64,000 nucleotides of DNA. Source: Nitrospirota bacterium (GTDB lineage: Bacteria > Nitrospirota > Thermodesulfovibrionia > Thermodesulfovibrionales > Dissulfurispiraceae). The notes beneath the pieces were generated by a model. It made no database searches. It had not been told where the DNA came from and saw only the letters and a program-made list of their open reading frames with translations. Location of the stretch: positions 248,001-312,000 of the forward strand of contig JBFMHE010000001.1 of assembly GCA_040752355.1 (NCBI GenBank), written 5' to 3'. The translations under genes were made by a program, and so were the position numbers. This document shows positions 30,668 to 50,582 of this stretch, one piece after another. The stretch's first letter is position 1, and each line of letters opens with the position of its first letter.

Positions 30668-30668
30668 C

Positions 30669-31514
30669 ATGAGGAAGAACTTAGCAATAATACTATTACT
30701 ATTCCCTGTTTTGAGCTTTTCTCAAGAGTTAGCGACATTCTTGATACTTAATGATATAGGTGCATATAAATATAGACCTAAAAGGACGGGTGAAATGTAT
30801 GGCAGCAGTGGTACTCTGATACCAACAGGTCATTTTGATTCAGACCATAATGATACTACGTACAAGACGAGATATGTGCATCCTGTAACAATCTTGGGTG
30901 TTGACGTTCAGGTCACCCAACATGCGGGCAGCGATTCGGATAAATGGCTGCTGCATGAGGTGGAGCGGGTATTTAGGAACTACTATGGGATGCCCGGAGA
31001 TAGCTATGTCATAAGGCAGATAAACGGCAATAGCATAATGGCTGCAGGTACAGGAGGATGGCGCTATGTGTGGCTGAGTGGCAATAAGGTGGTGAACATA
31101 CAATACACCGATCTTCAGATGAGCAAGTCTGAACCGCTCGAAGTTGTGCAAGCATATCTGACAAAGCACCCATCAACACTTCCTGTCATGTCCTCCTCTG
31201 ATTTAAGAACACCTGAAAACAAGGCCAAATGGATCAAAGACGAGATGGAACGGAGGTTGTGGCTCTGTGACAAGTGGAGCATGCAGTATCAGCTAGGTAA
31301 GGTAACGCAGAGTGACATGATCAGAGAACTGGTCGAGCACATGACAGTCTTTCTGGACTACCGGGACAGATACTACGGCATCAAGGCAGATGATGAGAAG
31401 ATGGCTCTTTCAAACTATCTGCTTCAGAACAACGGCACAGCTATCAGGAACAGGCTTTCAGAATACAAGACGTGGTGGGGCGCAAACAAGGGGAGGGTAA
31501 TCAGCCTGCCGTAG
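30669..31514 (+). CDS. Secreted protein of unknown function
   Basis: The 281-aa protein has a clear signal peptide (MRKNLAIILLLFPVLSFS, then QE). The first half is beta-rich with aromatic residues (GGWRYVWLSGNKVVNIQYTD); the second half is helical (about 175-270), from WIKDEMERRLWLCDKW to the end. I do not recognise a family. AGGAGG (30657-30662) gives the start at ATG 30669, 1 base after the preceding stop, so it is surely co-transcribed with the large fusion gene. Its base composition is AT-rich, like the end of that gene. It may be a partner or inhibitor of it, but this is only a guess from position. Confidence 0.75.
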   Translation: MRKNLAIILLLFPVLSFSQELATFLILNDIGAYKYRPKRTGEMYGSSGTLIPTGHFDSDHNDTTYKTRYVHPVTILGVDVQVTQHAGSDSDKWLLHEVERVFRNYYGMPGDSYVIRQINGNSIMAAGTGGWRYVWLSGNKVVNIQYTDLQMSKSEPLEVVQAYLTKHPSTLPVMSSSDLRTPENKAKWIKDEMERRLWLCDKWSMQYQLGKVTQSDMIRELVEHMTVFLDYRDRYYGIKADDEKMALSNYLLQNNGTAIRNRLSEYKTWWGANKGRVISLP

Positions 31515-31596
31515 AATAAGTATGCAATGAGGAAGAGAGGATGGCAACTGTATAGAGCGATCAAGTGGCTGACGACTGCTATAACAGGTGAAAGGT

Positions 31597-32010
31597 ATGA
31601 ACAAAAAGAAGAGTGATAAGAGATTCTGGACAATTTTGGTTTTGTTGCTGATAAGTGGAGGGAGTTTGTTTTTTTCAGCAACAGGAGTGTTTTCAGGATA
31701 CTCCTCTGCCGCTGCTGCATCCCTCGACATCATCCAGCTCCTTAAGATTTCTCCGCAGGACCAGCGGGCGATTATCAAGACGGCTGACGGACAGATGCAG
31801 ATCATCAAGGTCGGTGATTCGCTCGGAGAGGACGGCAAGGTGGTTGAGATTGTGCAGGGAAGAGTCGTTATCGAAGAGCAGACAGAGCAGGGCGTCGAGA
31901 CGGTAATTATCCGGCTCGAAGGCGGGAAACAGAAGATCGAGCGCGTACGAAAGGCGCCTGAAAAGCAGCAGGCGCTGCATGCGCCGACAATCAAGAAAAG
32001 CAAAGAATGA
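31597..32010 (+). CDS. GspC/PilP-like inner membrane protein
   Basis: The 137-aa protein has one membrane helix (about 12-38) with a short basic cytoplasmic start, then a periplasmic part in which IKTADGQMQIIKVGDSLGEDGKVVEIVQGRVVIEE (about 57-92; family-like, read as two strands around KVGDSLG) resembles the homology region of GspC and PilP. These proteins link the inner-membrane platform of type II secretion or type IV pili to the outer-membrane secretin. The usual C-terminal PDZ or coiled-coil part of GspC is absent; the tail is basic. ATG 31597 is preferred; GTG 31588 is in frame. It stands alone, without other secretion genes, directly before the 6151-aa gene. Confidence 0.65.
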   Translation: MNKKKSDKRFWTILVLLLISGGSLFFSATGVFSGYSSAAAASLDIIQLLKISPQDQRAIIKTADGQMQIIKVGDSLGEDGKVVEIVQGRVVIEEQTEQGVETVIIRLEGGKQKIERVRKAPEKQQALHAPTIKKSKE

Positions 32011-32126: not shown

Positions 32127-35100
32127 ATGCTGGGAGAATTCTTCAGGAGCGTCGGCCGGCTGAAATTACTGTATTGTATCATGGTCGTGAGCCTCTTCTT
32201 GTCCCTCCCCAAACGCTCTTACCCCCAGGACTTTACCGCCCAGACCCTCGGCGATTACGGCAGCATTACCGTTATGGAAGTAACGGGCAATTACGATGCA
32301 TTGAAGCCCGACGGCACTCTCCATAATGTCCCTCGCGAAATCATCGCAAAAGAGTTCTTCAGAACGCATAAAGATGAGTACGATTTTCTCATCATCTTCT
32401 CCAACTTCGATTTCAAAATGCCGGAGGCAGAGGCTGAGGCCTTCTATCTCGGCGTCAAAAACGATACCCGGGGAATAGGAAAGCCGCTCTTCGATTACAC
32501 GCAGTCGACAGGGAGTAACGGAAAGCTTCAGGGCATCGTTGACATGGGGTATACCGCCAAACTGGTGATGGATCCCCTGAATCCCGGATTCGAAGAAACA
32601 CTCTATATTCTCGACCATGAGCTGCTGCACCGGTGGGGAGCATACGTGAAATTCAGGGATGCGAACGGCGCGATCAGCACCGCGCTGCTCGGCAGGGATG
32701 GAGCGCACTGGAGCTATCTGCTCGATTCGTACGGCTCGGTGCTTTACGGTAACCAATGGCAGAACAACAACGACGGGTCCTTCACCTCGACTGCTGCACG
32801 AAAGTATTATAGTCCCCTCGATCTTTACTTGATGGGCTTCACTGATAAGTCGCAGGTTCCGCCCATGCTGCTTATCGAGAGCCCGCATATCGACCCTACG
32901 CAATTGCCGAAGGTCGGCAGTACTATCACGGGCACGCCGCGCTACGTTACCATCGACGATATTATCGCGGCTGAGGGCGAAAGGATCCCCGGCGTTTCGG
33001 AGTCGCAGCAGTCCTTCAGTGCGGCATTCATATTCATTACGACGCCCGGCACCTATACCGGCGATGAGCTGTACGGTCTTGAGACGGTACGGGATGGATG
33101 GCAGACGAGGTTTTCTATTGTCACGGACGGCAGAGGGCTTGTTCAGGTAGCGGTCAAACCGAAGGATGATACACCGACCAATCCTGGCGTTATACCGCCT
33201 CCTGCGAATCCCCGGACCCTGCCGCCGAGCATCAATGACGGTGTCACATGGCTGGTCAACAGTCAGCAGGCCGACGGCAGCTGGATGGACCTCACGCAGA
33301 CACGAGAGCGCGATACTGCGGAAGTTGTGTTTGCGCTGCGGAGCTTTGGTGCAGCGGAGCCGAGCTATACGACGGGGCTCCAGTGGCTCAGCGGGATAAA
33401 CCCGGTGAATATCGATTATCTCTCGCGGAAGATTGCGGCACTCTCAGTCTCGGGACAGGACGTAGGTACGCTCGTGAGCGATCTGCTCTCCCGGCAGAAT
33501 GCTGATGGAGGGTGGGGCAGCGGCAAAGCTTACATGAGCAATACGCCTGACACTGCCCTGGCGTTGAAGACGCTGGCTGCTGTCGGGTACACGGATCAAT
33601 CTGTCATTTCCAAGACCATCGACTATCTTAAAACCCGGCAGAACGCTGACGGAGGATGGGGAAGCGATGACGGGAGCAGCACTATCGAGGTCACGGCAAA
33701 CGTGCTCTCGGCATTCAGCCGATACCGGAATGCATACCAGCTGCAGGACTCTATAGCCCCGGCTATTGCATCGATTATGCAAAAGCAAAACCCCGACGGC
33801 GGCTTTGGAAACAGCCCGAGCACTATCTACGATTCAGCGCGAGCGGTCTTGATTCTGAAAGAGTTCGATGCGCCTGGAGAGAGCACGGACAAGGCACTTG
33901 CCTATATTCTTGCCCACCAATCGGAGAATGGAAGCTGGTATGAGAGCCCGTACCAGACAGCGCTCGCTGTAAACGCGGTATGGAAAGCGACCGTTGATCC
34001 CGATCTGGCGATCAAGAACAGCGATATCACATTCACTCCCTCTACGGTCACGAGCCTTCCGGCAACCGTTACGGTTACGGCGACCATAGCGAATACTGGG
34101 CGTACCGACGTGCCCCAGGCAACAATCGTGCTCTATGAGGGGACGCCTGCCCAATCGAGCAAGGCAGGAGAGCAGACCGTTGCCGTCGCCGGTCAGTCAA
34201 CGGCGGTCGTAACGTTCCCCGTTACTATCAGAGATGGCAATGAGCATTGGTTTTTCATTGCACTTGACCCTGATAATCTCGTGAAAGAGTCAAACGAGGC
34301 GAACAATGCGGCTTTAAATATCATCAACCCTGAGGCGACGTATGATTTCGAGATACACTCTTCCGATGTTACGGTCTCTCAGAACCCCGTGGATATCTAT
34401 CAGAATGTAGCGATTACCTCAAAGATAACCAACAGGGGCACCATGAATGCCTACAATGTCCAGGTGAAATATTACCTTGACGAGCCTGGAGCGCCTTTTG
34501 AAATCGCGACGCAGACGGTACAGATTCCTGCAAACACCACTATAAGTAATGAAGTTATCTGGAAAGCAGATAAAGCGGGCACGGACCTCCCTCTTATTGT
34601 TCTCGCCGATCCCTTCGATACGTTTACCGAGCTTTCGGAGGCCAATAATAGAGCAACAACCTCGCTCACCGTGAACGGCTCGACCGATCCCAACCTGGCC
34701 ATATCGTACAAGGATATCGTCATTACGCCCAGTCCGGCGAACGACCGCGGAAACGCAATCATCTCAGCCGTTGTAAAAAACAATGGTTTTTCTGCAGCGT
34801 CCAATATAGCGGTGAGCTTCTATAAAGGCGTGCCGGGGGCGGATGGCATCCTTATCGGCACGCGAACAATCCTCTCTCTCGGTCCCGGCGAAAGTGCAGC
34901 GGCTTCCGTAGATTGGTTGAATATCCAGGGTTCGGGCGAGAGGATTATCTATGTCCAGGTCGACCCCGCTCACCAGATAACTGAGGTAAGTGAGGATGAC
35001 AACGATGCATTTGTAACTCTGGCGATTCGCAGCCTGCCTGACCTTGCCGTATCGTCCAACGCATTAGTACTTACCCCTGCCACGCCGAAAGAGGGGGATT

Positions 35101-38100
35101 CCGTCTCGATCAACGTTACTGTCCAGAACAGGGGAGAGCAGGGCGCCGCGAACGTGCTGCTCAGGATGAGCGAGGGAGGCACGGTGATCGGCTCTCAGAT
35201 CATATCCTCGATTGCAGGCAATTCCCAGGCTGCGGTGCCGTTCACCTATGCTACTGCAGGGAAGAAAGGATCTCATCAGATAACGGTCGTCGTCGATCCT
35301 GATAGTGCCATCATGGAACAAAGCAAGGAAAACAACAGCGCCTCGCGAAGCTTCGGCGTGCAGGATGCGAATCTCTGGCTCACTGAACGCTATATCTCTC
35401 CGAATGGCGATGGAATAAAAGACAATACGCAGTTCTCCTTCAGGCTGGATGTGGCGCAGACCGTGCAGATCGTCCTTATCGATGAGAAGGGAGCAGCGGT
35501 AAGGACCTTCAGCGGCATCGATTTCGAAAATACCACCGGGGGAATGATCACCTGGGACGGCCTGAATGATGAAGGGACGGTAGTTGATGACGGCGATTAT
35601 CAGATCCAGGTGGTCGACACAAATGGAAGAACACTCGGCAGCCTGCTCATCACCGTTGATACTAACCGATCACCGCTGGCAGAGGCGATAAGCACCAGGT
35701 ACCTACTCAACAGCAATCTCACCTGCATGCTGCCTCAAATATACAATAGCCAGTGGGCATGGTTTCCGGATGAAAGCGGGATTCTCTTCAGAATCTACGA
35801 TCCTGATCAGAACGCTCCTGAATATCCGACCGGTCTTTATGCGATGTCGCCTGATGGCGATGATATTCTCAGATTGATACCGGCACAGTGGGGTTGGGGG
35901 GGCGATCCGCTCTATGACTACCGCTTATCTGACTATGCGCTGTCTCCGAATGGAGAGAAAGTCATACTTACTGTCATAAAGCGCAGCAAGAAGGTCTGGA
36001 ACGATGGCTCCAGCCAGCTCTGGATTGTGGATAGAGATGGAAGGAATTTGACACTGCTCGACTCCTTTGATCTATCTAAAGAATGGAGATTCCTGGAGGA
36101 TGTCGCATGGTCTCCTGACGGGGAGTATGTACTCTACAAAGCAACAAATCCCACCGAATTGCGGATTATTACTTCAAGCGGCGGCGGTAAGGCCGTTATT
36201 GATGCAAATAATGAAGGGAATATCAGTTTCAGCTTTCTCAGGTGGTCGCCCGAAGACAGAAAAGTAGCATACCCCTTCAGCTTTTATGATTCTGAATGGT
36301 ATTACAGCGAGACAGTAAGAATCGCGGACATAACAGGCAGCAAGACGGATATCTTTATGCTCAATGGATCATTGACCGAATTAGAGTGGCTCACCAGCCA
36401 GAAACTGCTTATGAGGGAGGAGCACTATCAATCAAATGAGCTCTGGCTTATAGATGCAAGCGGTGCAGGAAATCACAGGAAATTATCTGATAGCGCCACT
36501 GCCTTCAGTGTCAGCCCCGACAAGACCCGCTTTGTTTTTATCGATGCAACACCTCAGAAATGGGACATGGTGCTTTTTGATGAGGAAACCGGCGGTACCG
36601 TTCTCCATGAGTCGCGCTCATTCGAATGGTTTGAAAGCATCAGAGATCTCGCATGGGCCTCGGACGGTACAAAATTGGCATTTATCGATCTTGCTTATGA
36701 AAAAATAGATGACTGCCACTATAACGGATATCTCGTTGTTATTGACTTAAGGACTATGGAGAAGAGGGCGTTTAAGGTCTCGGATGCTGAAGACACCTGC
36801 ATTGTCCCCACGTCGTATCATGTTTATACGATGGAAGGCGGCTCATGGAAAGAGCGGGGAGTGCTTCACTATGACTCGACCTATACAACAAAAGAGCTGG
36901 ATCTCACAAGGCATCTGGGTGCAACGGCAGGCGCCTACAGCATCAGAATAGCTCAGCAGGGTCTCGATGCCGCCCATATCGATTATGCGGCACTCTCTAT
37001 CAATGGCAGGCAGTACGGGCCGGTACAGGCTAAAAATCTTTCGAGTGGAGAGGACATTCTCAAGAAGGTTACTGCGAAGGATAACGATGTTGCCGATGCA
37101 CACAATGCAACGATTGACTTCGAATGGGAGCATGTTCCCGGTGGCGGCAGGATCTCTCTGGTGCTGCACGCACGGGAAGAGGACCTCAGCAAACGCAAGG
37201 CATCACCCTTCAGATATCCGGATACCGGGTACTATCCAGTCCAGCTGGAGCACAGCGCTCCGATTACCGTGGACGGCGCTCTTACGTCTGAAGACGGGCT
37301 TCCCCATCCTCTTTTCAGGACCTATTCACGACCTGTTACCGGTCATCCTCCAGGGTATAGTTACGGCTATGTAAAGACGGATGGAAGCTATCTCTACGGG
37401 GTCCTCGATTTTACCTCGGATAACACTGTTGATAGCGGCAGGGATTGGGGATCAATGGAGATAGCAACTCCCCACGGCAGCAAGACCTATGTTCTCAACG
37501 ATGTTCGCCAGGAATACGGGAAGACCTCTTTTACCTACACCGCTGCCGTTAATTATCAGCATAAGGTCTATGAGTTCAAGATACCGCTCAGTGAAATAGG
37601 AGCTGAAGAAGGGGACACCATCAATGTTGCCTTCCGCGCCTACGGCACTGCCGCAGGCGGGGGGAGTGCCGACGGTATTTACTACGAAGGCCATTTGCAG
37701 TGGCTCAGCGATAACCTCTCACTCATCGCCCAGGATACCAATGGCGCTTTTACTCTTAACTCAGACAGCGGTGGAAAGTCATATCTGCCGGTTGAAGGTG
37801 AATTGAGGGGAGTATCTCCATTGGGTAGATATGTAAATTATGAAGCCTCTATCGACCCTTCGAGCGCCTGCTCCGGCAGGGGCTATAGCGATCTGTGGGC
37901 GATGAGCTCTCTGCTCAATCTTACTGCTGATGTGAGGGCCGCCAAAGAAAAGTCCTTTGTTGTGCTTAAAGGAATCGCAGCGGACCTCAACTTCGAGGGA
38001 TATAAACTCGAATATGCCGATGTGAAACAGCCGAACAGTTGGAACCTTATCAGTCCGCCTTCTGATATCCCGGTCGTGAACGGTCCGCTCGCAGCCTGGG

Positions 38101-41100
38101 TGCCTCCCTATGAGGGGACATTCTACGTTAAACTGACGGTCTGGGATAAGGCGGGAAATACGAGGAGCGAAAGAAAGCGGGTATCCTGGGGACTCTCATC
38201 AGCAATAACCGGCATCTATAAGAGCCTTGAGCAGTTCTCGCCCAATGAGGATGGGATAAAAGACAGCTTCGAGCTCCATTACAGAATCTTGGAACCGGTG
38301 CATCTGGAGTTCACTATATTTGATGAGAACAGCAACCTTGTACGGACGCTTCTGAGGGACTACACCGTTCCGGCAGAAGACTTCATCGTCTGGGACGGCA
38401 GCGATGAATCCGGCAGAATCGTGCCGGATGGTAACTACTTGGTCAGGATTTTTGACTATGAGTTTTTTGTCGAGGTCGATACGACCCCGCCGACGCTCAA
38501 GCTAAAGATAAGCCCGTTTGACCAAGGGACTCACACCGTTGAGCTTTCAGGCTATGCCGTTGACAAGGAACTGAAACAGTGGGTTATCGAGTACGGTGAG
38601 GGCGAGAACCCCCGGGAGTGGTATGAGTATGCGAGCGGAGATGGTCTGCTCGTGGAAAGAGATGCCCGGGGAGAGGCCGTTCTCGATCCGCTAAAGGAAA
38701 CGAGAATACAGAAATTTCCTGAAGGATTAGTTGAGAGGCTGGTCGGGAAGCGGTTCAGAATTTCGGCGGAGGATTTTGCAGGTAATAGAAGTACGGTAGT
38801 GGCAAACCTTCTCGAAGAAAAGATAGCGCTTCTCCAGTGGGATGACATGCCTGTATTGGCTTCACCGGTACTGCCTGCTGCTAAGGCAAGGCCCGGGCTT
38901 CACAACATTAAGGGACTGGAGACCGTAGGGCTGCCCTTGAGCAGCATGACCATGGAGTATTGGAATGGAGCGCAATGGCAGGAGGCGGCGTCGATAATGG
39001 ATCCGCAATCGGGCATCGTGGTTCTGCAATGGGACACCTCCAGTCTGGATATTGAGGACATCGGTGCCATAAGGATAAAGGCCGTTGACCAGATCGGAAA
39101 CGCTTATTATTCCAGTACGCTCGTTACGGAATCGATATTCGGGATAAGCAGCACCTGTAATGCGGAGGCCGTCGCCTCGAATTCTCTCTTTGAAGATATT
39201 ACCTCCCTAAGGCTTTCTGTACAAAGCAAACAGGATAGCCGTTATGCAGAATGGACTGATTACAAGATCTATGACATCGCCGCAGGCAGCGCCGTGCCGA
39301 AAGGACTGTTTTTTCTGCCGCTCCCCTTAACGACGAACGGTATGGAGTACGGCATCAGGATGACCGGTATCGGTGTCGGTGGAACAGTGTATGTGAGTAG
39401 TACCGCACAGTATCCGCCGTTGTGCCTGAATGTCACCCTAAACGTAGAGTACGCCGAGACGGAATGCGGTACCTTATCGAACAAAGCGAAACTCTCGACA
39501 AAGATCGAGGGCCAAAGCCTGAAGGGGGATGTAGCATTAAAAACATTGGAGTATTCGCTCGTGAAACCGGATGGCCGACAGCTCCTCCGTAGATTTGACA
39601 TACCCAAAGAGGGAATGGGGAGTATCGTGATCGATACCGCTTCCCTGGCGGAGGGAGCGTATACGGTAGAAGCAGCCGTCAAATATACCGATCTCGCCGA
39701 AGGCAGTACTCTTGAGCAGCCTGCTGAAAAGACGCTTGTAGTCGACCATACGCTTCCCAATGCTCAAATAACCTATCCCGGAAAAAACCTTATGATCTGC
39801 CCCGTGCGAATCTCCGATCCCAAAGGTGACTGGTATGGGATACCGGTGGAGGGTATCGCGACGGATAACGGCGACATGGACAGATATGAGCTGTACTACA
39901 GTATCGGTGAGAATCCGGATGTATGGGTTCCTGCTATCACGAGGCTGAACGGCAAAGATATCCCTGTTTCGGGAAATAAACCTATAAAAGGCCAGTTAGG
40001 GCTGTGGGACATCTCCGCCCTGAGAGGAACGAGCTACTCACTCCACCTGAAAGTGATCGACAGTGCTGGAAACGTAAGCTGCGCTCCCGCAAGTTTCTCA
40101 ATGGATACCCTGGTCGAGATACCGCTGCTTTCAAACGACAAATATTTGTTCTCGCCAAATAGCGACGGGATGCTCGACGATGTAGCGACAACTTATAGAA
40201 TCGAGGAATACACTACCGTTGATATAGAAGCGTTCAAGGCGCTGAGACAGGCGGACGGCTCGTACCTTCTCGATGCAGCGCCGATCAAAACCATGGCCGC
40301 GGGTCTCCCGCACCTGGGCGGACAGGGAAGCCTTCTCTGGGACGGCAACGATGGTTCCGGAGTTCCCGTGCCTGACGGCGTTTACGGGATTGCGGTGCTC
40401 GCAAAGGATTCCTGTGGAAACACCGCTATGAAGTGGGCGGCTGCCGAAGTGGACACCACTGCGCCTACAACGGTGATTTCCCATCCCCTTCCTTCTGATC
40501 CGCTCGGCACCATTGTCGAGGTAAAGGGGACGGCAAGCGATCTGCATTTCAAGAACTATGTAGTGGAAATAGGCCAGGGTGATGCTCCTGAAGCCTGGAG
40601 CACGGTTTCATCATCAACCCCTATCCCTGTCGTAAACAATATGCTCGGCACATGGAACACGTTCGGCCTCGACGGGCGCTGGACTATCAGGCTTACGGCA
40701 TACGACACTGTTGGAAACAAGAATGAAACAAAAACGACTGTCGATCTGGGGGCAAGGAAAACGCTTATTAAAGACCTTGGAGTGGCGCCACGGCTCTTCT
40801 CGCCGAACAGCGACGGCAGGCTCGACACCACTGCGGTAGCATACGAGCTCACCGATGCCTGCCAGGTGCAGATTGAGATTCTCGATTCCGCTGGTGTGGT
40901 GAGAAAAACGTATACCGGCACGACGCCGTCGGCCGGACGTTACACCTATTCCTGGGACGGCAGGGACTCCACGGGAACGGCGATGGTTCCCGACGGAAGC
41001 TATACCGTTAAGTTTACTGCAGCGCTCTCGTCGAACCCCCCAATTGCGCAGACCGAGTCGGTAACCGTGTCCGTCGATACGACGATGCCGACCGTGGATA

Positions 41101-44100: not shown

Positions 44101-47100
44101 GGAATACTGCTAAAGACACCGGTTTTGACTTTTCCCCTTCTTACAGGACTGATAGAATCAGGATTTATGTGACCGATACAACAGATTCCCAATACTCAAA
44201 GCAGGTTAGGATCTCGGAGGTCGGCCTTATCAAAGAAAACCCGATAGCCGCAGTATCGTACCACGACAGTAACCTTCGTGATGATAATTATACGTATACG
44301 CTTACCGCTGTCGATTACTACGGGCTCGAAAGCAGCCCTTCTCAGAGCGCGACAGCCGCAGTGGGAGATGTCGTCCCTCCTGCAGCGCCGCTCGGACTCA
44401 CTGCCGCTGCCGTTGGTTCAGCGATCAACCTTACGTGGACGGCGGATGCAGAACCTGAAGTGGTCGGGTTCAACATATACCGGAACACCGGTCAGGGCTG
44501 GATGAAGATCAATGCTTCACCCGTGGCGGCAACGATCTATAGCGATACCGGCCTGCCGAACGGCACGTATATGTACCGGGTTACGGCCCTGGATGCCGTT
44601 CTGAACGAAAGCGCGCCATCTAATGATGCATCGGCAACCGTCTCTACCATTCCGCCGCAGACGCCAACGCATCTTACGGTCGCCCTGGTGCCGGAAGGGA
44701 GCGCACTCGATCTTGCCTGGAGGTATACCGGCGAGCCGGTAAGCGGTTTTGCGCTCTACAGGAGCACAACCGCGGGAGGACCGTATTCGAGAGTGTTCAA
44801 CGCTCCGGACGGCACAGTGTCCCATCGCGATACGGGTCTAACAAACCGTGTTCCCTACTACTATGTAGTTGCCGCAATCGACGCACTCGGCAATCAGAGC
44901 GGCTATTCCAATGAGGTTATGGACATACCGGCTGACACGATCTCTGCTGCGCCGCCGAAGCTCTTCTATCCGACCATGCCCGGAATACCTGTGGTACGGT
45001 ACACCGATAGGACCGCTGTTGCAGGGAAAGCAGAGCCCGGGATGACTGTCGAGCTTTTCCAGAACGGTGTTTCAGCCGGCACCACCGCGGCTGCGGCGAC
45101 CGATATCGCATCACTTGAAATTCCCCTCGACAGAGATGCCTACGACTTTGCGCTCTCACCGGACGGGCAGCTGCTCGTCCAGGTGAAGAATGATTCCCTG
45201 TGGCTCCAGAATCTCTCTACCGGGGAGACGAGGCAAATAGTTCGAGATGGATACGGTCCGGTCTGGTCTCCTGAGGGGAGAAAACTCGCCTATCGATTCA
45301 CCGATGAGCAATGGAATGAGCGTATTGGCATATACGACTTCTCGACAGGGAAGATCATTCCGTTGACCGATGACCACAACGTGTATGAAAGGAAACCCTC
45401 GTGGTCATTCGACGGTATGACGGTTGCCTTTATCAGCACACGCAGTGGATCGGATGACGTGTGGATAAAAGATCTCGCGACAGGAGCCGTATCACAGATT
45501 ACTGAAAATAAGCACGTCGACAATGCAAAGCTCTCTCCTGATGGAACGAAGCTTGCCTATTTCATAGGGGGAGTGCTTACTGCAATCGATATCGCGAACG
45601 GGAGCTCCGTGCAGATAGACGATAATGCTGATGCATACTCCCTCGAGTGGTCTCCCGACAGCACGAAGCTGGCATTCGTGAGCTATAGAAACGGCAGGTC
45701 GGATATCTTCATAACCGATACGGCAGGCCAGAGCCAAACGCAGCTCTCTTATATCAATACCGACACCTTCAACCCGTTGTGGTCCCCCGATGGACAGCGT
45801 ATCCTCTATGCAACCTGGGATAGCAGAGGCCCGATGCTCTGGACCGCTGCTGCAGAGGGACAAGGCCAGGATCATATGCTGAAACAGCTTGTGCAGAGCA
45901 TCGATATGCTCTTCTGGCCGCAATCGGGCGACATCGCCCATGCCGATAACGGCGTAATGACTGCAATCCGCCCTGCAGGACACTTTATCTTTAGCGAAGT
46001 AGTGCTCTCTCGAGGGGAGAACACTTTTTATGCCGTTGCCATTGACGATTCGGGCAATGCAAGCCAGCCCTCCGGAACCATCTCTGTTACGCTGGATACT
46101 GCTTTGATGCCTGACCTGGAGATATCCCTGGATGATATTTTCATCTATCCTCCTTACCCGAACAAGGGGGAAGAGGTCGCCGCCTATGTCTCGGTATGGA
46201 ACAGAGGGGGGATCGCTGTTGCCGACGCCGCACTCGACCTTTATCTCCTTGAGCCTGCAGGGACGATGGATCTGCTCACGACGACCACGATAGCCTCTAT
46301 AGCACCGGGTGCGGCAGAGGTCGTTCATCTGCCGTGGAGTGCGGATAGGATCGGCACGTACACAATCATCGCGATGGCGGATCCCGGTGGTGCCCTCCGC
46401 GAAAGTAACGAAGAGAACAACCTTGCCATGAAAGCGGTGAGCGTCATGAGCAGTGAGGGCATCGTCATGACACTGAAGACCGATGCCGACAGCTATCAGA
46501 CAAACGCGGATGCAACGATCTCGGTAACGCTGGGCAATTCCGGCAGAGAGGTCGATGGTACGCTTATGCTGACGATCGAGGACGACAGCGGCGTTCCCCT
46601 TGCACAGCTGAATCCGGTGGGAGTATCACTGCCGTACGCTGCGACTAGAGATATTGGATTCGTCTGGAACACGGGCGTGACCTATTCGGGCCACTACCGC
46701 GGGGTAGCCCGCCTGAGCAACGGCTCGGGTATTCTGGCTGAGAGCACAGCTTCCTTTACGATATCACCCGATCTGACGGTGACTGCTGCCGTAACCACCG
46801 ACAAGGCCGAGTACGGCGCTCAAGAAAAGGTAGCGGTACATGTCGACCTGAAAAATATCGGAAGTAACTACGTCATTCAGGAATTGACCGCACGCCTCAC
46901 CATCGCCAGGAATGACGCTCTCATTGTCTTCTCTGAGGAAACAGTGCTCAGAAATCTCATGCCGCAGACGACTAACGAACTGAATGCACAATGGGACACC
47001 GGGCTTTCAGTCCCCGGCGCATATAGTGCATCCGTCGAAGCCGTTATCGACAACCGCATTGTCGCTACCGGCACGACCCTCTTCATGGTGGGCCAGTCGG

Positions 47101-50100
47101 GGGATATCTCCGGCAGCATAACAGCGACTCCGGCTGCCGCGGTCTATAATCAGCCGGTTCACATTGCATATGTTCTCAAAAATAACGGGAACAGCGCGAT
47201 CAGCGCGCTTCCCGTGAAGATCACGATTATCGATTCCGAGACTCAGACGGTCATGGACAGCGGTGAGGCACTTGTTGCTCTGCCGATGGGCGGTTCTCAG
47301 GCAGGCTCGATGAGCTTTGATACGCGGGGATATCGATTAAGAGGCTATACAGCAACGCTCAAAGTCATGCAAGAGGGGAGCGCAAAAACAGTCTCGACCA
47401 CCTCATTTGTAGTCAGGGATGCAACACCCCCTTCTATTTCCGTGCTGGCGCCTCTCGCTGACAGCTACTACAAAGCACGGTTTGATCTTGCCGCGCTCGT
47501 CACGGACGATGTCTCGGGCCTGGACAAGGTCGAGTATAGCGTCGATGGAGACGTATGGAAGCTTCTGCCAGCAGCAGATCGTGCGGCCGGGCGCTATTCG
47601 CTGCCCTGGACCCCTGCAAAGAGTGACGAAGGCGCCCATACCATAAGCTTCAGGGCAACAGATGCGTCGGGGAACAGTGCCGTTACCAGCGGGATACCTT
47701 TTCTCATTGATATCACTCCTCCGGCCATTTCCCTCTCCGGAGCAGAGCAGGGCAAGTACTACAGCAACGATGTAACACCTGTTTATAGCGCCTCGGATTC
47801 TCATCTCCTCACCGTAACCGGGATTCTTAATGGAGTCTCGTTTACGAGCGGGACAACAATCGTTGCTGAAGGCGGCTACGAGCTTGTGATTACGGCGACC
47901 GATAGAGCTGGGAATATGTCAAAGTATCCCTACACATTCATGATCGATAAAACCAAGCCCTCCGGCAGTATAGCACTCCAAGGCGCTCAGTTCGAACAAA
48001 ACGATTTGCTCATGGTTGCGGGGACGACTGTCTTTTCCCTCAGCGGCAAGGATGAGGGGAGCGCTATCTCAGGGCTTGCAAAGCTCGAATACAGAATCAA
48101 TGAGAGCCCCTGGAGCATCTATCACAATCCCTTTGTCCTTGCCGGTGTAAGCGACGGAGCGGTTCGGATCGACTACCGGGCGGTCGATCGGGCGAATAAT
48201 GTTGAGGATTTCCATACGCTCTCGGTTATTGCCGATACGGCCTCTCCGTTAACAACGCTCTCGGTCGGTGCTCCCCGGCATACTACGCAAACGGGTGAGC
48301 TATACGCCACAAAGAGCTCCGTGATAACCCTCTCGGCCTCCGACGCATCGAGCGGAGTGGCTAAAACGGAGTACCGGATCGACAACGGGGAATGGACAGT
48401 ATATGCGCCGTTCACCATCGCGCTCGAAGGAGCGCATACCCTTTCGTATCGCAGTATCGATAACCTCGGTGCCGTCGAAGAAACAAGGGAAGCGGTTATC
48501 GTTATCGACAACACCCCGCCGGTTACGGTGCTCACTGCCAGCGAACCGATCTACCGCGGCAGTGACGGGACCCTCTACGTACGCGGGAACACGATCTTTA
48601 CTCTTGCAGCAGCCGATACTCTTTCGGGAGCCGCGGGAGCAGAATACCGTATCGATGGGGGATCGTGGACTGCGTATGCGCCATTCACCCTGAGTAACGG
48701 AGGCCGCCATACTATCCATTACAGGAGCAGCGATAGTGTGGGGAATATCGAAATAGAGAATTCGCTCGATGTTGTGCTCGATGATACGCTGCCGGTATCA
48801 GTGCTCGGTATCGGGGCACCGCAGTATAGCGCAAACGGAGCCCTCTACATAAACGGCACGACGGCAATAACCATAACAGCAACGAGCAGCGGAAGCGGGA
48901 TAAAGAGCATCGAGTACCGTATCGACAGCGGCCCTTATGCTGCTTATACCGGGCCGGTTACGCTCGGTATCCACCCCGAAGGTGAACACACCGTCACCTA
49001 CTACGCTACCGATAATTTAGGTGCAAGAGAAATCGCACGGGATAAAACGGTTGTGCTCGATATGACGCCGCCCCAGACGACGATTACTGTTTCCGATCCT
49101 CTCGAAGGGAGCGGCAGCATCTCAACAAAGACACTCTTTACATTGCAAGCGACTGATGCGCGCTCGGGAGTAAAGGCACTTATGTATAACGTTGACGACG
49201 GGGCCTGGCAGCAGTATGCCGGGAGCTTCAGCCTCTCCGGTCAGAGCGCAGGCGTGCATACCATAGCCTACAAGGCGGTAGATAACGTGCACAACGCGGA
49301 GGCGCCGAAGACGATGACCGTTACCCTCAAGAGCGCTGAATTGGATGTCGAAAAAGACATCTCTACGGATACCGCTGTTCTCATTGGAGCATGGGAGGAT
49401 ACTCCCGGTGTCTGCAGAAAGAGACATGACCTCAGTGCCCTTGAGCAGATGCTCACCGCACACGGCATCAAATACCGGGCCGTTTCTACCCAGGATGAGT
49501 TTATAGAAGCTCTGCGCTCCGGAAGATATCCGGTTTATCTGCTTCTCGATCTGAAGGAGGGGCATATCAGCAGGGAGATAACAGAGGCGGTGCACTATGG
49601 GGATGGGTTGGTCTTCATAAAAACAAAACCCGATGCAGAGCACGCGCTCGATGCGCTCGGCGTCGCGTTCAAAGGACACAGCAGCCAGAGAGGACTGTCC
49701 ATCACGGTGAAACAGAGTCCGATAAGCGATGCAGGAGTCTTGCCGACGAATGCAGGCGGTAAAGTCATGAAAGCCGAAATTACCTCGTCTACCACGCACA
49801 GCCTCGGGGAAGTAATCGATAGGAAGCGGACCTATCCGGTCATTACTGCCAACCAGTACGGGAGAGGTAAAGTTGTTCTGTTCAGCTTCGATCTGATCAA
49901 CTGTCCCGACAAGGTGAGAGCCGGCGCTCTCCTGGCAAACGCACTCGGTTACGTTGTCCCTGAGGAGCGCCCGGTCAGGCCTCTCGAGAGCGTACCGGTT
50001 ATGATCGAGGTGGGGAGTGCACAGGGGCCTCTGAGTATAAAGGTCACGGAGCGCCTGCCGAACGACGCTGCTGCGGAGAGCGCCACCCCGCCACTGGTCC

Positions 50101-50582
50101 AGACGGAAGGAATGATCGTCTGGCAGCAGGCCATAGCTGACCATGAAAGAGCGCAGTTCGAGTATTTCCTTATCCTCCCCGATGCGAGGGGAACATTCAC
50201 TCCGATAACCGAGCTTGAGTATGAGGCGGGCGGCTCCTATAGCACGTACGGCACCTATCCTCTCCCGTTGACGGTGCAGCATACCTCTATAGAGTTACAG
50301 GATAAGATCATAACCGAGCTGATGGCGATGTATCCGGCCTCTCCCTCCGATGCTGCGAATCTGCATAGAGCGATTGATGTTATTTCTCGCCTTGACCGTG
50401 CTGCCGGGCTTCGCCACGAGATGGAAGTAAACATCGACAGACTGCTCTTGGCGGCAGATCTGCTGAAGGCCCTCTCGTTCGATGCCTCGAGCGTGCGGCT
50501 GAAAGTTGATGAGCTGCTGAAGGTATGGGAGGCGAAATGGTACCGCTCCAACGAGGAGTTATGCAGTGCGGATTGGCAGTGA
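32127..50582 (+). CDS. Giant multidomain exoprotein (6151 aa)
   Basis: An N-terminal hydrophobic segment (about 12-30) suggests export. Then come: a metallopeptidase-like region with HELLH (H164, E165, H168); an alpha-toroid of prenyltransferase/squalene-cyclase type with repeated QNADGGWG motifs (about 370-625); four CARDB domains (about 626-1075); four FlgD-like domains marked by SPNxDGxxD (at 1091, 2038, 2676, 2892); a TolB/PD40-type beta-propeller (about 1205-1550); a possible sugar-binding jelly roll (about 1705-1860); Ig-like domains; six Fn3 domains (about 3287-4270), one interrupted by an F5/8-type discoidin domain (about 3898-4036); a second propeller inside an Ig domain (about 4330-4602); another CARDB (from about 4662); OmpL47-like repeats (about 5275-5735); a ThuA/glutaminase-like domain (about 5738-5952) and a helical end. 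It is intact over 18 kb. The architecture suggests a surface or secreted adhesin with enzymatic ends, perhaps processed. Confidence 0.85.
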   Translation: MLGEFFRSVGRLKLLYCIMVVSLFLSLPKRSYPQDFTAQTLGDYGSITVMEVTGNYDALKPDGTLHNVPREIIAKEFFRTHKDEYDFLIIFSNFDFKMPEAEAEAFYLGVKNDTRGIGKPLFDYTQSTGSNGKLQGIVDMGYTAKLVMDPLNPGFEETLYILDHELLHRWGAYVKFRDANGAISTALLGRDGAHWSYLLDSYGSVLYGNQWQNNNDGSFTSTAARKYYSPLDLYLMGFTDKSQVPPMLLIESPHIDPTQLPKVGSTITGTPRYVTIDDIIAAEGERIPGVSESQQSFSAAFIFITTPGTYTGDELYGLETVRDGWQTRFSIVTDGRGLVQVAVKPKDDTPTNPGVIPPPANPRTLPPSINDGVTWLVNSQQADGSWMDLTQTRERDTAEVVFALRSFGAAEPSYTTGLQWLSGINPVNIDYLSRKIAALSVSGQDVGTLVSDLLSRQNADGGWGSGKAYMSNTPDTALALKTLAAVGYTDQSVISKTIDYLKTRQNADGGWGSDDGSSTIEVTANVLSAFSRYRNAYQLQDSIAPAIASIMQKQNPDGGFGNSPSTIYDSARAVLILKEFDAPGESTDKALAYILAHQSENGSWYESPYQTALAVNAVWKATVDPDLAIKNSDITFTPSTVTSLPATVTVTATIANTGRTDVPQATIVLYEGTPAQSSKAGEQTVAVAGQSTAVVTFPVTIRDGNEHWFFIALDPDNLVKESNEANNAALNIINPEATYDFEIHSSDVTVSQNPVDIYQNVAITSKITNRGTMNAYNVQVKYYLDEPGAPFEIATQTVQIPANTTISNEVIWKADKAGTDLPLIVLADPFDTFTELSEANNRATTSLTVNGSTDPNLAISYKDIVITPSPANDRGNAIISAVVKNNGFSAASNIAVSFYKGVPGADGILIGTRTILSLGPGESAAASVDWLNIQGSGERIIYVQVDPAHQITEVSEDDNDAFVTLAIRSLPDLAVSSNALVLTPATPKEGDSVSINVTVQNRGEQGAANVLLRMSEGGTVIGSQIISSIAGNSQAAVPFTYATAGKKGSHQITVVVDPDSAIMEQSKENNSASRSFGVQDANLWLTERYISPNGDGIKDNTQFSFRLDVAQTVQIVLIDEKGAAVRTFSGIDFENTTGGMITWDGLNDEGTVVDDGDYQIQVVDTNGRTLGSLLITVDTNRSPLAEAISTRYLLNSNLTCMLPQIYNSQWAWFPDESGILFRIYDPDQNAPEYPTGLYAMSPDGDDILRLIPAQWGWGGDPLYDYRLSDYALSPNGEKVILTVIKRSKKVWNDGSSQLWIVDRDGRNLTLLDSFDLSKEWRFLEDVAWSPDGEYVLYKATNPTELRIITSSGGGKAVIDANNEGNISFSFLRWSPEDRKVAYPFSFYDSEWYYSETVRIADITGSKTDIFMLNGSLTELEWLTSQKLLMREEHYQSNELWLIDASGAGNHRKLSDSATAFSVSPDKTRFVFIDATPQKWDMVLFDEETGGTVLHESRSFEWFESIRDLAWASDGTKLAFIDLAYEKIDDCHYNGYLVVIDLRTMEKRAFKVSDAEDTCIVPTSYHVYTMEGGSWKERGVLHYDSTYTTKELDLTRHLGATAGAYSIRIAQQGLDAAHIDYAALSINGRQYGPVQAKNLSSGEDILKKVTAKDNDVADAHNATIDFEWEHVPGGGRISLVLHAREEDLSKRKASPFRYPDTGYYPVQLEHSAPITVDGALTSEDGLPHPLFRTYSRPVTGHPPGYSYGYVKTDGSYLYGVLDFTSDNTVDSGRDWGSMEIATPHGSKTYVLNDVRQEYGKTSFTYTAAVNYQHKVYEFKIPLSEIGAEEGDTINVAFRAYGTAAGGGSADGIYYEGHLQWLSDNLSLIAQDTNGAFTLNSDSGGKSYLPVEGELRGVSPLGRYVNYEASIDPSSACSGRGYSDLWAMSSLLNLTADVRAAKEKSFVVLKGIAADLNFEGYKLEYADVKQPNSWNLISPPSDIPVVNGPLAAWVPPYEGTFYVKLTVWDKAGNTRSERKRVSWGLSSAITGIYKSLEQFSPNEDGIKDSFELHYRILEPVHLEFTIFDENSNLVRTLLRDYTVPAEDFIVWDGSDESGRIVPDGNYLVRIFDYEFFVEVDTTPPTLKLKISPFDQGTHTVELSGYAVDKELKQWVIEYGEGENPREWYEYASGDGLLVERDARGEAVLDPLKETRIQKFPEGLVERLVGKRFRISAEDFAGNRSTVVANLLEEKIALLQWDDMPVLASPVLPAAKARPGLHNIKGLETVGLPLSSMTMEYWNGAQWQEAASIMDPQSGIVVLQWDTSSLDIEDIGAIRIKAVDQIGNAYYSSTLVTESIFGISSTCNAEAVASNSLFEDITSLRLSVQSKQDSRYAEWTDYKIYDIAAGSAVPKGLFFLPLPLTTNGMEYGIRMTGIGVGGTVYVSSTAQYPPLCLNVTLNVEYAETECGTLSNKAKLSTKIEGQSLKGDVALKTLEYSLVKPDGRQLLRRFDIPKEGMGSIVIDTASLAEGAYTVEAAVKYTDLAEGSTLEQPAEKTLVVDHTLPNAQITYPGKNLMICPVRISDPKGDWYGIPVEGIATDNGDMDRYELYYSIGENPDVWVPAITRLNGKDIPVSGNKPIKGQLGLWDISALRGTSYSLHLKVIDSAGNVSCAPASFSMDTLVEIPLLSNDKYLFSPNSDGMLDDVATTYRIEEYTTVDIEAFKALRQADGSYLLDAAPIKTMAAGLPHLGGQGSLLWDGNDGSGVPVPDGVYGIAVLAKDSCGNTAMKWAAAEVDTTAPTTVISHPLPSDPLGTIVEVKGTASDLHFKNYVVEIGQGDAPEAWSTVSSSTPIPVVNNMLGTWNTFGLDGRWTIRLTAYDTVGNKNETKTTVDLGARKTLIKDLGVAPRLFSPNSDGRLDTTAVAYELTDACQVQIEILDSAGVVRKTYTGTTPSAGRYTYSWDGRDSTGTAMVPDGSYTVKFTAALSSNPPIAQTESVTVSVDTTMPTVDMKQPVSEAYFKSDIAVNGTIADTNILEYAVSYSGGSSAALLDQASQSREGYTFGLLSELAEGNYLLTVKAKDLAENTNEKNIAFVIDRTPPKVTLDTPKGGEYHGSDKGIITVTGAIVEQNLEMYALRYGAGDVPAQWIDLLSGAAVPSNPQLYSWKVGKNDGIPDGAYTVQLSAKDKAGSTGEARAKIIVDNTLPEAAITSLKDGEYVRSAIEVRGSASDTNLDTYTLEVSEGVCSAAFKWITIKASTASVKDGILATWQTLPPDGAYCLRLTVLDKVGNKAETSAGIKVDTHPPAAPVLSGKIESKSNARLEWTPNGESDLGGYALYRNGQKVTASVIKESTYFDQNLAEGEYSYIVTAIDRAGNESAHSNEIKLKVDMTGPDARVRAPQNGAKISGLVDIKGTAYSPDDFKQYRVYIGRETNPSEWGLIRTSPLAVAYGSLAQWDTLGLSEDIYSIKLEAEDLTGNTTVHHITVAIDNAPPSAPLLISAVPNGSEIALTWNANTESDLAGYLLYRNDQLANVSGIVVGDLKAYLIAATSYLNKALPDGKHKYYLVAVDQAGNMSEQSNALEVTIDTRPPHATIVEPLNASKFQGKVLVKAESPDTDIASVAFQFKRAQDSAWTNLGTPVLQLPYALTMDPLSLGMIYGDYHLRAIATDQGGKTDPSPAFITVTFTDLTPPDAPIDLKALTSGVDVTLTWSMTSEADAKGYYLYRISEGSKVKINSAMISEKTFKDNGLPDGTYTYEVTAADTYNNESKPSNAASAKIYAPLLTQPYTPASQKTIPLAGSGAGPYNSVEFFDDNGSGTVSVGSTITDGQGNFTFNAVLALGLNKLTARATDNAGNTSRTSEIVAVVYNEPPTPPTGLTAAAQDYTVSLTWDTHPEADVVGYNLYRNDERINQPVPVYSGTADASSYYSYPSNAFDGDPYTYWASRYGYGTFNPAWWEIALPAPELISHISILWGSRTDSQGNEMLYAGKDFEIQVWTGYNWITQAKVTGNTAKDTGFDFSPSYRTDRIRIYVTDTTDSQYSKQVRISEVGLIKENPIAAVSYHDSNLRDDNYTYTLTAVDYYGLESSPSQSATAAVGDVVPPAAPLGLTAAAVGSAINLTWTADAEPEVVGFNIYRNTGQGWMKINASPVAATIYSDTGLPNGTYMYRVTALDAVLNESAPSNDASATVSTIPPQTPTHLTVALVPEGSALDLAWRYTGEPVSGFALYRSTTAGGPYSRVFNAPDGTVSHRDTGLTNRVPYYYVVAAIDALGNQSGYSNEVMDIPADTISAAPPKLFYPTMPGIPVVRYTDRTAVAGKAEPGMTVELFQNGVSAGTTAAAATDIASLEIPLDRDAYDFALSPDGQLLVQVKNDSLWLQNLSTGETRQIVRDGYGPVWSPEGRKLAYRFTDEQWNERIGIYDFSTGKIIPLTDDHNVYERKPSWSFDGMTVAFISTRSGSDDVWIKDLATGAVSQITENKHVDNAKLSPDGTKLAYFIGGVLTAIDIANGSSVQIDDNADAYSLEWSPDSTKLAFVSYRNGRSDIFITDTAGQSQTQLSYINTDTFNPLWSPDGQRILYATWDSRGPMLWTAAAEGQGQDHMLKQLVQSIDMLFWPQSGDIAHADNGVMTAIRPAGHFIFSEVVLSRGENTFYAVAIDDSGNASQPSGTISVTLDTALMPDLEISLDDIFIYPPYPNKGEEVAAYVSVWNRGGIAVADAALDLYLLEPAGTMDLLTTTTIASIAPGAAEVVHLPWSADRIGTYTIIAMADPGGALRESNEENNLAMKAVSVMSSEGIVMTLKTDADSYQTNADATISVTLGNSGREVDGTLMLTIEDDSGVPLAQLNPVGVSLPYAATRDIGFVWNTGVTYSGHYRGVARLSNGSGILAESTASFTISPDLTVTAAVTTDKAEYGAQEKVAVHVDLKNIGSNYVIQELTARLTIARNDALIVFSEETVLRNLMPQTTNELNAQWDTGLSVPGAYSASVEAVIDNRIVATGTTLFMVGQSGDISGSITATPAAAVYNQPVHIAYVLKNNGNSAISALPVKITIIDSETQTVMDSGEALVALPMGGSQAGSMSFDTRGYRLRGYTATLKVMQEGSAKTVSTTSFVVRDATPPSISVLAPLADSYYKARFDLAALVTDDVSGLDKVEYSVDGDVWKLLPAADRAAGRYSLPWTPAKSDEGAHTISFRATDASGNSAVTSGIPFLIDITPPAISLSGAEQGKYYSNDVTPVYSASDSHLLTVTGILNGVSFTSGTTIVAEGGYELVITATDRAGNMSKYPYTFMIDKTKPSGSIALQGAQFEQNDLLMVAGTTVFSLSGKDEGSAISGLAKLEYRINESPWSIYHNPFVLAGVSDGAVRIDYRAVDRANNVEDFHTLSVIADTASPLTTLSVGAPRHTTQTGELYATKSSVITLSASDASSGVAKTEYRIDNGEWTVYAPFTIALEGAHTLSYRSIDNLGAVEETREAVIVIDNTPPVTVLTASEPIYRGSDGTLYVRGNTIFTLAAADTLSGAAGAEYRIDGGSWTAYAPFTLSNGGRHTIHYRSSDSVGNIEIENSLDVVLDDTLPVSVLGIGAPQYSANGALYINGTTAITITATSSGSGIKSIEYRIDSGPYAAYTGPVTLGIHPEGEHTVTYYATDNLGAREIARDKTVVLDMTPPQTTITVSDPLEGSGSISTKTLFTLQATDARSGVKALMYNVDDGAWQQYAGSFSLSGQSAGVHTIAYKAVDNVHNAEAPKTMTVTLKSAELDVEKDISTDTAVLIGAWEDTPGVCRKRHDLSALEQMLTAHGIKYRAVSTQDEFIEALRSGRYPVYLLLDLKEGHISREITEAVHYGDGLVFIKTKPDAEHALDALGVAFKGHSSQRGLSITVKQSPISDAGVLPTNAGGKVMKAEITSSTTHSLGEVIDRKRTYPVITANQYGRGKVVLFSFDLINCPDKVRAGALLANALGYVVPEERPVRPLESVPVMIEVGSAQGPLSIKVTERLPNDAAAESATPPLVQTEGMIVWQQAIADHERAQFEYFLILPDARGTFTPITELEYEAGGSYSTYGTYPLPLTVQHTSIELQDKIITELMAMYPASPSDAANLHRAIDVISRLDRAAGLRHEMEVNIDRLLLAADLLKALSFDASSVRLKVDELLKVWEAKWYRSNEELCSADWQ

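What the first reader, a model, noticed from the sequence alone, without database searches (positions are those of the whole stretch)
32127..50582. 6151-aa protein combining metallopeptidase, alpha-toroid, propellers, discoidin and ThuA-like domains
The single open frame spans over 18 kb without interruption. It starts with an HELLH zinc motif, continues with a squalene-cyclase-like toroid with QNADGGWG repeats, and ends with a ThuA/glutaminase-like fold and a helical tail. Enzyme-like modules at both ends of a chain of adhesion-type domains is an architecture I do not recognise.
Basis: partly seen in the sequence, partly recalled or inferred. Interest (0 to 1): 0.65.

Follow-up and report, generated by a model that had tools for sequence, protein, structure and literature searches.

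The report
Conserved giant secreted zinc-peptidase scaffold protein
A real 6,151-residue bacterial protein, with a predicted zinc-cutting domain at its front and about 5,000 residues of binding and spacer domains behind it, turns out to be an undescribed family found in several bacterial phyla, nearly always one copy per genome and usually next to a small gene that looks like the docking part of a protein-export machine.

Summary
The frame 32127-50582 is open for 6,151 aa, and 15 other genomes carry full-length relatives (5,382-7,002 aa), collinear with it over aa 1-~5200. An assembly error is therefore excluded.

Domains: a Sec-type signal; a zincin-like domain whose HExxH-25-H motif is invariant in 46 relatives (AlphaFold2 pLDDT 95; no Pfam, NCBIfam or PDB relative found); a non-cyclase alpha-toroid; CARDB, Ig, propeller and discoidin modules; and a ThuA/GATase1-fold C-terminus without any invariant Cys or His. 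The C-terminal module is swapped in other lineages.

A 140-aa secreted protein just upstream carries a PilP/GspC-like HR domain, the kind that binds secretins. It lies next to 25 of 31 giants and none of 10 controls. Further upstream is a transglutaminase-like protein whose C-terminus is swapped (phosphodiesterase, lipase-like, RHS repeats with a SUKH immunity gene).

Best reading: a giant surface or extracellular metallopeptidase-adhesin scaffold, exported through Sec and a T2SS/T4P secretin with a dedicated HR adaptor, working with a variable effector. Export route and function are inferred. No description was found in the papers searched. New variant of a known kind.

The parts
24350..30667 (+). 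Upstream cassette gene 1: 2,105-aa secreted protein, transglutaminase-like N-terminal part (aa 218-331) and a C-terminal type I phosphodiesterase/nucleotide pyrophosphatase domain (aa 1482-1801)
   Evidence: Pfam Transglut_core 3.7e-9, Phosphodiest 4e-20. N-terminal part recurs upstream of giants in L029, L036, L037, L040, L065, G042, G046 with a different C-terminus in most. Strong homologues in 5 of 6 giant-bearing genomes and 1 of 54 others.
30630..31514 (+). Upstream cassette gene 2: 294-aa secreted protein of unknown family; overlaps gene 1 by 38 bases
   Evidence: No Pfam/NCBIfam hit; homologues in the same place in L028, L032, L067.
31588..32010 (+). Small secreted HR-domain protein (140 aa), PilP/GspC-like, 116 bases before the giant
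   Evidence: Pfam T2SSC 4.5e-4 and PilP 6e-4, both below cut-off; 13 of 19 family members hit T2SSC; best PDB rows of the profile are PilP, PilP and later GspC at E 0.09-0.5; its weak hits in other genomes are PilP of pilMNOPQ operons and GspC with a PDZ domain.
32127..50582 (+). The giant: 6,151-aa secreted protein
   Evidence: Single open frame; collinear relatives in 15 genomes.
32127..32228 (+). Sec-type signal peptide (aa 1-34)
   Evidence: Read from the sequence: basic start, hydrophobic core, small/polar end. No signal-peptide predictor was available.
32232..33146 (+). N-terminal zincin-like domain (aa 36-340)
   Evidence: Mobile unit: same domain sits at the C-terminus of other proteins (class B). 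AlphaFold2 pLDDT 95.2, pTM 0.91.
32616..32630 (+). HELLH zinc motif, aa 164-168
   Evidence: H, E and H invariant in 46 sequences.
32706..32711 (+). H194-W195, presumed third zinc ligand
   Evidence: Invariant in 46 sequences, 24-31 residues after HExxH.
33222..34046 (+). Alpha-alpha toroid, squalene-cyclase/prenyltransferase-like (aa 366-640), without DxDD
   Evidence: SQHop_cyclase_C 1.2e-17, Prenyltrans 7.7e-10, TED 1.3e-8; motif test.
34047..35351 (+). Four CARDB domains (aa 641-1075)
   Evidence: CARDB, 4 stretches, 2.2e-46.
35430..35627 (+). FlgD Ig-like domain (aa 1102-1167)
   Evidence: FlgD_ig 3.9e-7.
35694..36821 (+). Probable beta-propeller 1 (aa 1190-1565)
   Evidence: Weak: TolB model 3.5e-4, below cut-off.
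36822..37697 (+). Insert (aa 1566-1857) present in this protein and in G077 but not in the other 14 giants compared
   Evidence: Segment BLAST and the gap in pairwise alignments.
38271..43868 (+). Array of FlgD-Ig, Big_13, Big_3_3, RGI_lyase-type and other Ig-like domains (aa 2049-3914)
   Evidence: Pfam.
43869..44162 (+). Discoidin / F5/8 type C domain (aa 3915-4012)
   Evidence: F5_F8_type_C_2 4.3e-11.
45324..46046 (+). Beta-propeller 2, PD40/DPPIV-N-like (aa ~4400-4640)
   Evidence: PD40 7.6e-20, DPPIV_N 3.6e-16.
46110..46424 (+). Fifth CARDB domain (aa 4662-4766)
   Evidence: CARDB 1e-19.
47430..49325 (+). Big_7 and OmpL47-type Ig repeats (aa 5102-5733)
   Evidence: Big_7; NCBIfam barrel_OmpL47 7.1e-19, above cut-off.
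49368..49964 (+). ThuA/GATase1-fold domain (aa 5748-5946), no conserved nucleophile
   Evidence: AlphaFold2 pLDDT 86; ThuA-like 1t0b Z 17.8 rmsd 3.1 over 197, GATase1-like 3rht Z 18.6 rmsd 2.6 over 185; no invariant Cys/His.
49989..50573 (+). Beta-sandwich (aa 5955-6050) and four-helix tail (aa 6054-6149)
   Evidence: Secondary structure of the model; conserved in 11 relatives.

Best explanation
The ORF encodes a conserved giant secreted protein. Shown: the intact frame, the domain order, conservation across phyla, an invariant HExxH...H motif in a well-predicted N-terminal domain, and a recurring gene neighbourhood. Inferred: it leaves the cytoplasm through Sec, folds in the periplasm and crosses the outer membrane through a T2SS or type IV pilus secretin. 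The small upstream HR-domain protein would act as a dedicated docking adaptor by binding the secretin N0 ring, as PilP, GspC and GspB do. Outside, the roughly 5,000-residue array of CARDB, Ig, discoidin and propeller modules would serve as a reach-and-bind stalk to matrix or neighbouring cells. The N-terminal zincin would cut either the giant, its transglutaminase-effector partner or surface proteins. The C-terminal module (ThuA-like here) is an exchangeable, non-catalytic tip. The transglutaminase-like protein encoded upstream, with a swapped hydrolase or RHS C-terminus, would be a partner or cargo of the same system.
For: Open frame and collinear relatives. Invariant H, E, H, HW in 46 domains; motif kept in Acidobacteriota and Latescibacterota; zincin rows at the top of Foldseek though not significant. 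HR-protein homology to PilP/GspC from four directions (with 56). HR gene within ~820 bp upstream, same strand, in 25 of 31 giant loci, 7 of the 13 not used to build the profile, and 0 of 10 class B loci that share only the peptidase domain. In 60 related genomes strong HR hits occur in 5 of 6 giant-bearing and 0 of 54 others. Transglutaminase N-part in 5 of 6 versus 1 of 54. The host genome has two secretins, one PilQ-like (L085) and one GspD-like (L084). HR domains of GspB, GspC and PilP share a fold and bind secretin N0, and a signal-peptide-fused, membrane-free GspB still binds its secretin in vivo (PMC9239104). Variable C-termini with a SUKH immunity gene in L037.
Against: No experiment. 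The HR match is below Pfam's cut-off. Six of 31 giant loci lack an adjacent HR gene, G046 has none detected, and G053 has only a broken copy on another contig. Giant-bearing genomes are related, so the co-occurrence counts are not independent events. I know of no T2SS substrate of this size. No zinc-site geometry was measured and the predicted peptidase fold has no confident PDB match.
Confidence: 0.5

Rival explanations
1. A generic giant adhesin or matrix scaffold exported with no special help; the HR gene is a neighbour that serves the type IV pilus or T2SS itself (an assembly factor like GspB), and the peptidase domain matures the giant.
For: Most domains are adhesion-type. GspB-type HR proteins are assembly factors. 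Some giants lack the HR gene. Giant bacterial surface proteins without a dedicated secretin adaptor are common.
Against: Strong HR hits occur only in giant-bearing genomes (5 of 6 against 0 of 54) although several of the other genomes were shown to carry ordinary PilP/GspC. The gene is next to the giant, not in pil or gsp operons.
Confidence: 0.27
2. The giant is the delivery or anchoring scaffold of a polymorphic-effector system: the upstream transglutaminase protein carries an exchangeable effector, which the giant's zincin releases or its stalk presents to other cells.
For: Conserved N-part with swapped C-termini: phosphodiesterase, abhydrolase/lipase-like (L036, L040, G042), RHS repeats (L037). 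SUKH immunity gene after the RHS gene (L037), RHS-Stv gene (L039), RES-domain gene (L038). Transglutaminase and RHS modules with T2SS-type export are described in polymorphic toxins (PMC3482391). Co-occurrence 5 of 6 against 1 of 54.
Against: In the window the C-terminus is a phosphodiesterase, which may be nutritional (phosphate scavenging), and gene 2 is not a known immunity family. Some giants have no such gene nearby (L043, L051, L054). G047 has the transglutaminase protein without the giant. No physical link is shown.
Confidence: 0.2
3. Assembly artefact or fusion of several genes.
For: A few homologues are broken (G058, L039, L025, L042, L062).
Against: Fifteen other full-length collinear relatives from independent assemblies.
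Confidence: 0.01

Closest known systems
GspB/OutB, GspC and PilP HR-domain proteins of T2SS and type IV pili
   Same: The small upstream protein has the HR-type beta-domain by profile, is secreted, and its profile finds PilP and GspC in other genomes.
   Different: Single HR domain without PDZ, lipobox or evident permanent anchor, encoded beside the giant rather than in a pil/gsp operon; homology is below Pfam cut-off.
SslE/YghJ (M60-like zinc metalloprotease secreted by T2SS, E. coli; PMC4014459, PMC8881592)
   Same: Secreted zinc-metalloprotease motif in a large multi-domain surface protein linked to biofilm; secretin-dependent export.
   Different: SslE is about a quarter of the size (own knowledge) and belongs to M60; the present N-domain hits no Pfam family, and its route is only inferred.
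SiiE and LapA-type giant adhesins (T1SS)
   Same: Size (SiiE 595 kDa, PMC6272769) and Ig-array stalk.
   Different: N-terminal Sec-type signal instead of a C-terminal T1SS signal; no RTX repeats found by Pfam; carries an enzyme-like domain at the N-terminus.
Polymorphic toxin systems (PMC3482391)
   Same: Neighbour gene has a constant transglutaminase N-part and swapped C-termini, with RHS repeats and SUKH immunity in L037.
   Different: The giant itself is not a described component, and in the window the variable end is a phosphodiesterase without a recognised immunity gene.
ThuA / class I glutamine amidotransferase-like fold
   Same: Predicted C-terminal fold, Z 17-20 over 180-200 residues.
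   Different: No invariant Cys or His in 11 relatives; module replaced in other lineages.

Membership tests
Zincin metallopeptidase (superfamily level) | HExxH with a downstream third ligand | tested here: met
   H133, E134, H137, H163 (domain numbering) invariant in 46 sequences; distant relatives keep it.
Zincin metallopeptidase (superfamily level) | Zincin fold with zinc-site geometry | tested here: inconclusive
   High-confidence model, but Foldseek gave nothing at E<1e-3 (top rows M1 aminopeptidases, E 0.35 and worse) and VIA best Z 4.0.
Named Pfam/NCBIfam peptidase family | Score above curated cut-off | tested here: not met
   No NCBIfam hit; only stray sub-threshold reprolysin-like hits in 4 of 46 members; no PDB sequence hit.
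Squalene-hopene cyclase | DxDD catalytic motif | tested here: not met
   No DxDD in the toroid of 15 of 16 giants; one D-A-D-D in G077 at aa 858, in the longer stretch searched there.
Alpha-alpha toroid domain | Pfam match above cut-off | tested here: met
   SQHop_cyclase_C 64 bits against 26.1.
ThuA/GATase1-like | Flavodoxin-like GATase1 fold | tested here: met
   Z 17.8 with ThuA-like 1t0b (rmsd 3.1, 197 aligned); 18.6 with GATase1-like 3rht (rmsd 2.6, 185 aligned).
Class I glutamine amidotransferase (enzyme) | Conserved Cys nucleophile and His | tested here: not met
   Invariant columns of A4 contain no Cys or His.
GspC/PilP HR-domain family (small gene 31588-32010) | Pfam T2SSC or PilP above cut-off | tested here: not met
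   20.5 bits against 27 and 20.2 against 25.6.
GspC/PilP HR-domain family (small gene 31588-32010) | Profile recovers true PilP/GspC | tested here: met
   Weak hits in G021 and G002 are the PilP position of pilMNOPQ, in G024 a GspC with PDZ; PDB rows PilP and GspC.
GspC/PilP HR-domain family (small gene 31588-32010) | Binds secretin N0 domain | not testable with these tools
   Needs binding assay or complex prediction.
T1SS giant adhesin (RTX/LapA/SiiE) | C-terminal T1SS signal and RTX repeats, no Sec signal | tested here: not met
   Sec-type N-terminus by eye; no RTX family in the Pfam scans.
T9SS cargo | Type IX sorting domain at the C-terminus | tested here: not met
   CHU_C hits are internal and overlap FlgD_ig; the C-terminus is helical.
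Polymorphic toxin system (neighbour gene 24350-30667) | Constant N-part with swapped C-terminal domains | tested here: met
Polymorphic toxin system (neighbour gene 24350-30667) | Adjacent immunity gene | tested here: inconclusive
   SUKH gene in L037; the window's 294-aa gene has no family.

The most novel reading that the evidence does not exclude
A dedicated export-and-delivery cassette: a soluble single-HR-domain adaptor recruits a roughly 600-kDa zincin-headed scaffold to a T2SS/T4P secretin, and the scaffold's peptidase processes or presents an exchangeable transglutaminase-linked effector encoded in the same cluster. This would be an unrecognised branch of secretin-dependent secretion for giant proteins, with a new zincin family at its head.
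Probability: 0.2. Interest if true: 0.82.

Novelty: new variant of a known kind. Interest (0 to 1): 0.58.

Why it matters
Giant bacterial genes have been described as mostly strain-specific (cited in PMC11573180). This one keeps its order of modules over about 5,000 residues across phyla, so it is doing something that selection maintains. It carries a widespread putative peptidase domain with no curated family. If the HR protein is an adaptor, it would show how secretin systems can take on a very large cargo and would make the long-open question of secretin substrate recognition testable with one small soluble protein.

Tried and rejected
Assembly error: rejected. Active squalene/hopene cyclase: rejected, no DxDD. 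Thioester TED domain: no CGEQ. Active glutaminase end: no conserved nucleophile. T9SS or T1SS cargo: not supported. Phage origin: no match in phages; plasmids gave one distant Acidobacteriota hypothetical protein. RNA elements: none in 22500-52000. Promoter and terminator scans gave no more than chance. Named solved structure for the N-domain: none by sequence or fold; VIA rows at Z 4 or less were treated as noise. Literature searches for a description of this protein found none; that library holds only open-licence papers and no preprints.

Full report
1. The observation. The frame 32127-50582 (+) is one ORF of 6,151 aa starting with ATG. It begins with a Sec-type signal peptide (read by eye). 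HELLH lies at aa 164-168 and a further HW starts at aa 194. Pfam confirms a squalene-cyclase/prenyltransferase-type toroid, five CARDB domains, FlgD-Ig and other Ig-like domains, an F5/8 type C (discoidin) domain and a PD40 propeller. NCBIfam adds OmpL47-type repeats near the end. The N-terminal propeller rests on a weak TolB match.

2. It is a family, not an artefact. A search of 60 related genomes found the N-domain in nine, several in open frames of 5,822-6,448 aa. A scan of about 85,000 species genomes found 46 loci, mostly Nitrospirota and Thermodesulfobacteriota (Geobacteraceae, Desulfobulbaceae), with single cases in Gammaproteobacteria and elsewhere. In the genomes behind those loci, intact open frames cluster at 5,397-5,880 aa, with one of 7,011, and all but one of the 23 genomes gave a single match. 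I compared 16 full-length giants in 200-residue segments. Window segments up to about aa 5200 match in the same order in all of them, mostly at 30-70% identity; the exceptions are the insert at aa ~1566-1857 (shared only with G077) and parts of the first propeller. That excludes an assembly chimera and shows long-term selection on the whole chain. In a sample of 296 genomes of the phylum the domain occurs in 23, so distribution is patchy.

3. Two classes. In class A (the giants) the peptidase domain is N-terminal and followed by the toroid. In class B it sits near the C-terminus of other proteins. On a tree of 46 domains class B falls into two clusters, so the domain is a mobile module.

4. 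The N-terminal domain. In 46 relatives (down to 31% identity) H, E, H and the later H-W are invariant, with a 25-residue spacer in 42 of 46. The motif and a LDLYLMG signature recur in a Granulicella plasmid protein and in a Latescibacterota protein. AlphaFold2 gives pLDDT 95.2 and pTM 0.91. No family in Pfam or NCBIfam reaches its cut-off, no PDB chain matches by sequence, and Foldseek has no significant row, though its top rows are M1 aminopeptidases, which are zincins. I take it as a probable zinc peptidase of an uncurated family. Activity and zinc geometry are untested.

5. The C-terminal module. aa 5731-6151 folds with pLDDT 86. Residues 18-216 of the model match ThuA-like and GATase1-like proteins (1t0b Z 17.8, rmsd 3.1, 197 aligned; 3rht Z 18.6, rmsd 2.6, 185 aligned). 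The 11 relatives share no invariant Cys or His, so it is unlikely to be an amidotransferase. In other lineages it is replaced: a glycosidase-like barrel plus DUF7305 in G046, Ig repeats plus DUF7305 in G063 and G067, further Ig/fn3-type repeats in G065 and G069, and Calx-beta-like repeats in G077 (read by eye). The C-terminus is the exchangeable part.

6. The toroid lacks the cyclase DxDD and the CGEQ thioester motif. It is likely a binding or structural domain.

7. The neighbours. All four genes run in the same direction with short gaps (24350-30667, 30630-31514, 31588-32010, 32127-50582). The 140-aa protein at 31588-32010 matches T2SSC and PilP below cut-off; 13 of 19 relatives hit T2SSC. 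Its profile's best PDB rows are PilP, and GspC follows. Its weak hits in other genomes, when read out, are PilP in pilM-N-O-P-Q clusters and a GspC with a PDZ domain. I therefore call it an HR-domain protein. A homologue lies on the same strand just upstream of 25 of 31 class A giants (7 of the 13 loci not used to build the profile) and of none of 10 class B genes. In 60 genomes strong hits occur in 5 of 6 giant carriers and 0 of 54 others; one of the five (G053) is a broken copy on another contig. HR domains of GspB, GspC and PilP share a fold and bind secretin N0, and a soluble periplasmic GspB still binds its secretin (PMC9239104). The host genome has a PilQ-like and a GspD-like secretin.

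8. The transglutaminase-like gene. Its N-part is strongly conserved in 5 of 6 giant carriers and 1 of 54 others. Its C-terminus is swapped: phosphodiesterase here, alpha/beta hydrolases in L036, L040 and G042, RHS repeats in L037, with a SUKH immunity gene beside the RHS form. That is the pattern of polymorphic effectors (PMC3482391). Whether the window's phosphodiesterase is an effector or a nutrient enzyme is open.

9. Mechanism. Shown: intact gene, domain order, conservation, motif invariance, neighbourhood. Inferred: Sec export, secretin passage with the HR protein as adaptor, surface or extracellular location, peptidase activity, partnership with the transglutaminase protein. The co-occurrence numbers are not independent because carriers are related.

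10. Novelty. The building blocks are known; I found no description of this combination or of the N-domain family in the held papers. New variant of a known kind.

Noticed in passing
window 24350-30667; L036 3226-8772; L037 71-8674; L040 826-6894: Transglutaminase-like proteins with a constant N-part and swapped C-termini (phosphodiesterase, lipase-like, RHS), a SUKH immunity gene next to the RHS form: looks like an undescribed polymorphic-effector family in Nitrospirota and Geobacteraceae.
   Followed up: partly
L029 8577-9248, L040 7982-8644, L031 1401-2192, L038 5882-6895, L039 7867-8814: Y1/REP-type transposases repeatedly sit near the HR gene in the cassette (Pfam-confirmed in L029 only, the others by sequence likeness); they might help shuffle its exchangeable parts.
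   Followed up: no
L062 8927-9451 and 9495-9854: Two tandem HR-domain proteins precede the giant in the Olavius algarvensis Gamma 3 symbiont, where the giant's frame itself is broken.
   Followed up: no
window 36822-37697: A ~290-aa insert near propeller 1, shared only with the distant G077 giant; looks like a domain gained twice or lost many times.
   Followed up: no
L091 2363-4609 (Granulicella plasmid pACIX901) and L068: Distant relatives of the peptidase domain with HExxHRW...HW and LDLYLMG in Acidobacteriota and Latescibacterota: an uncurated zincin-like family.
   Followed up: partly
G000:C1:129957-130424: A second, distant transglutaminase-type protein (frame of 2,133 aa) in the same genome.
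   Followed up: no
L012 8274-10712 (G046): Where the HR gene is missing, an 812-aa protein without Pfam family sits directly before the giant.
   Followed up: no
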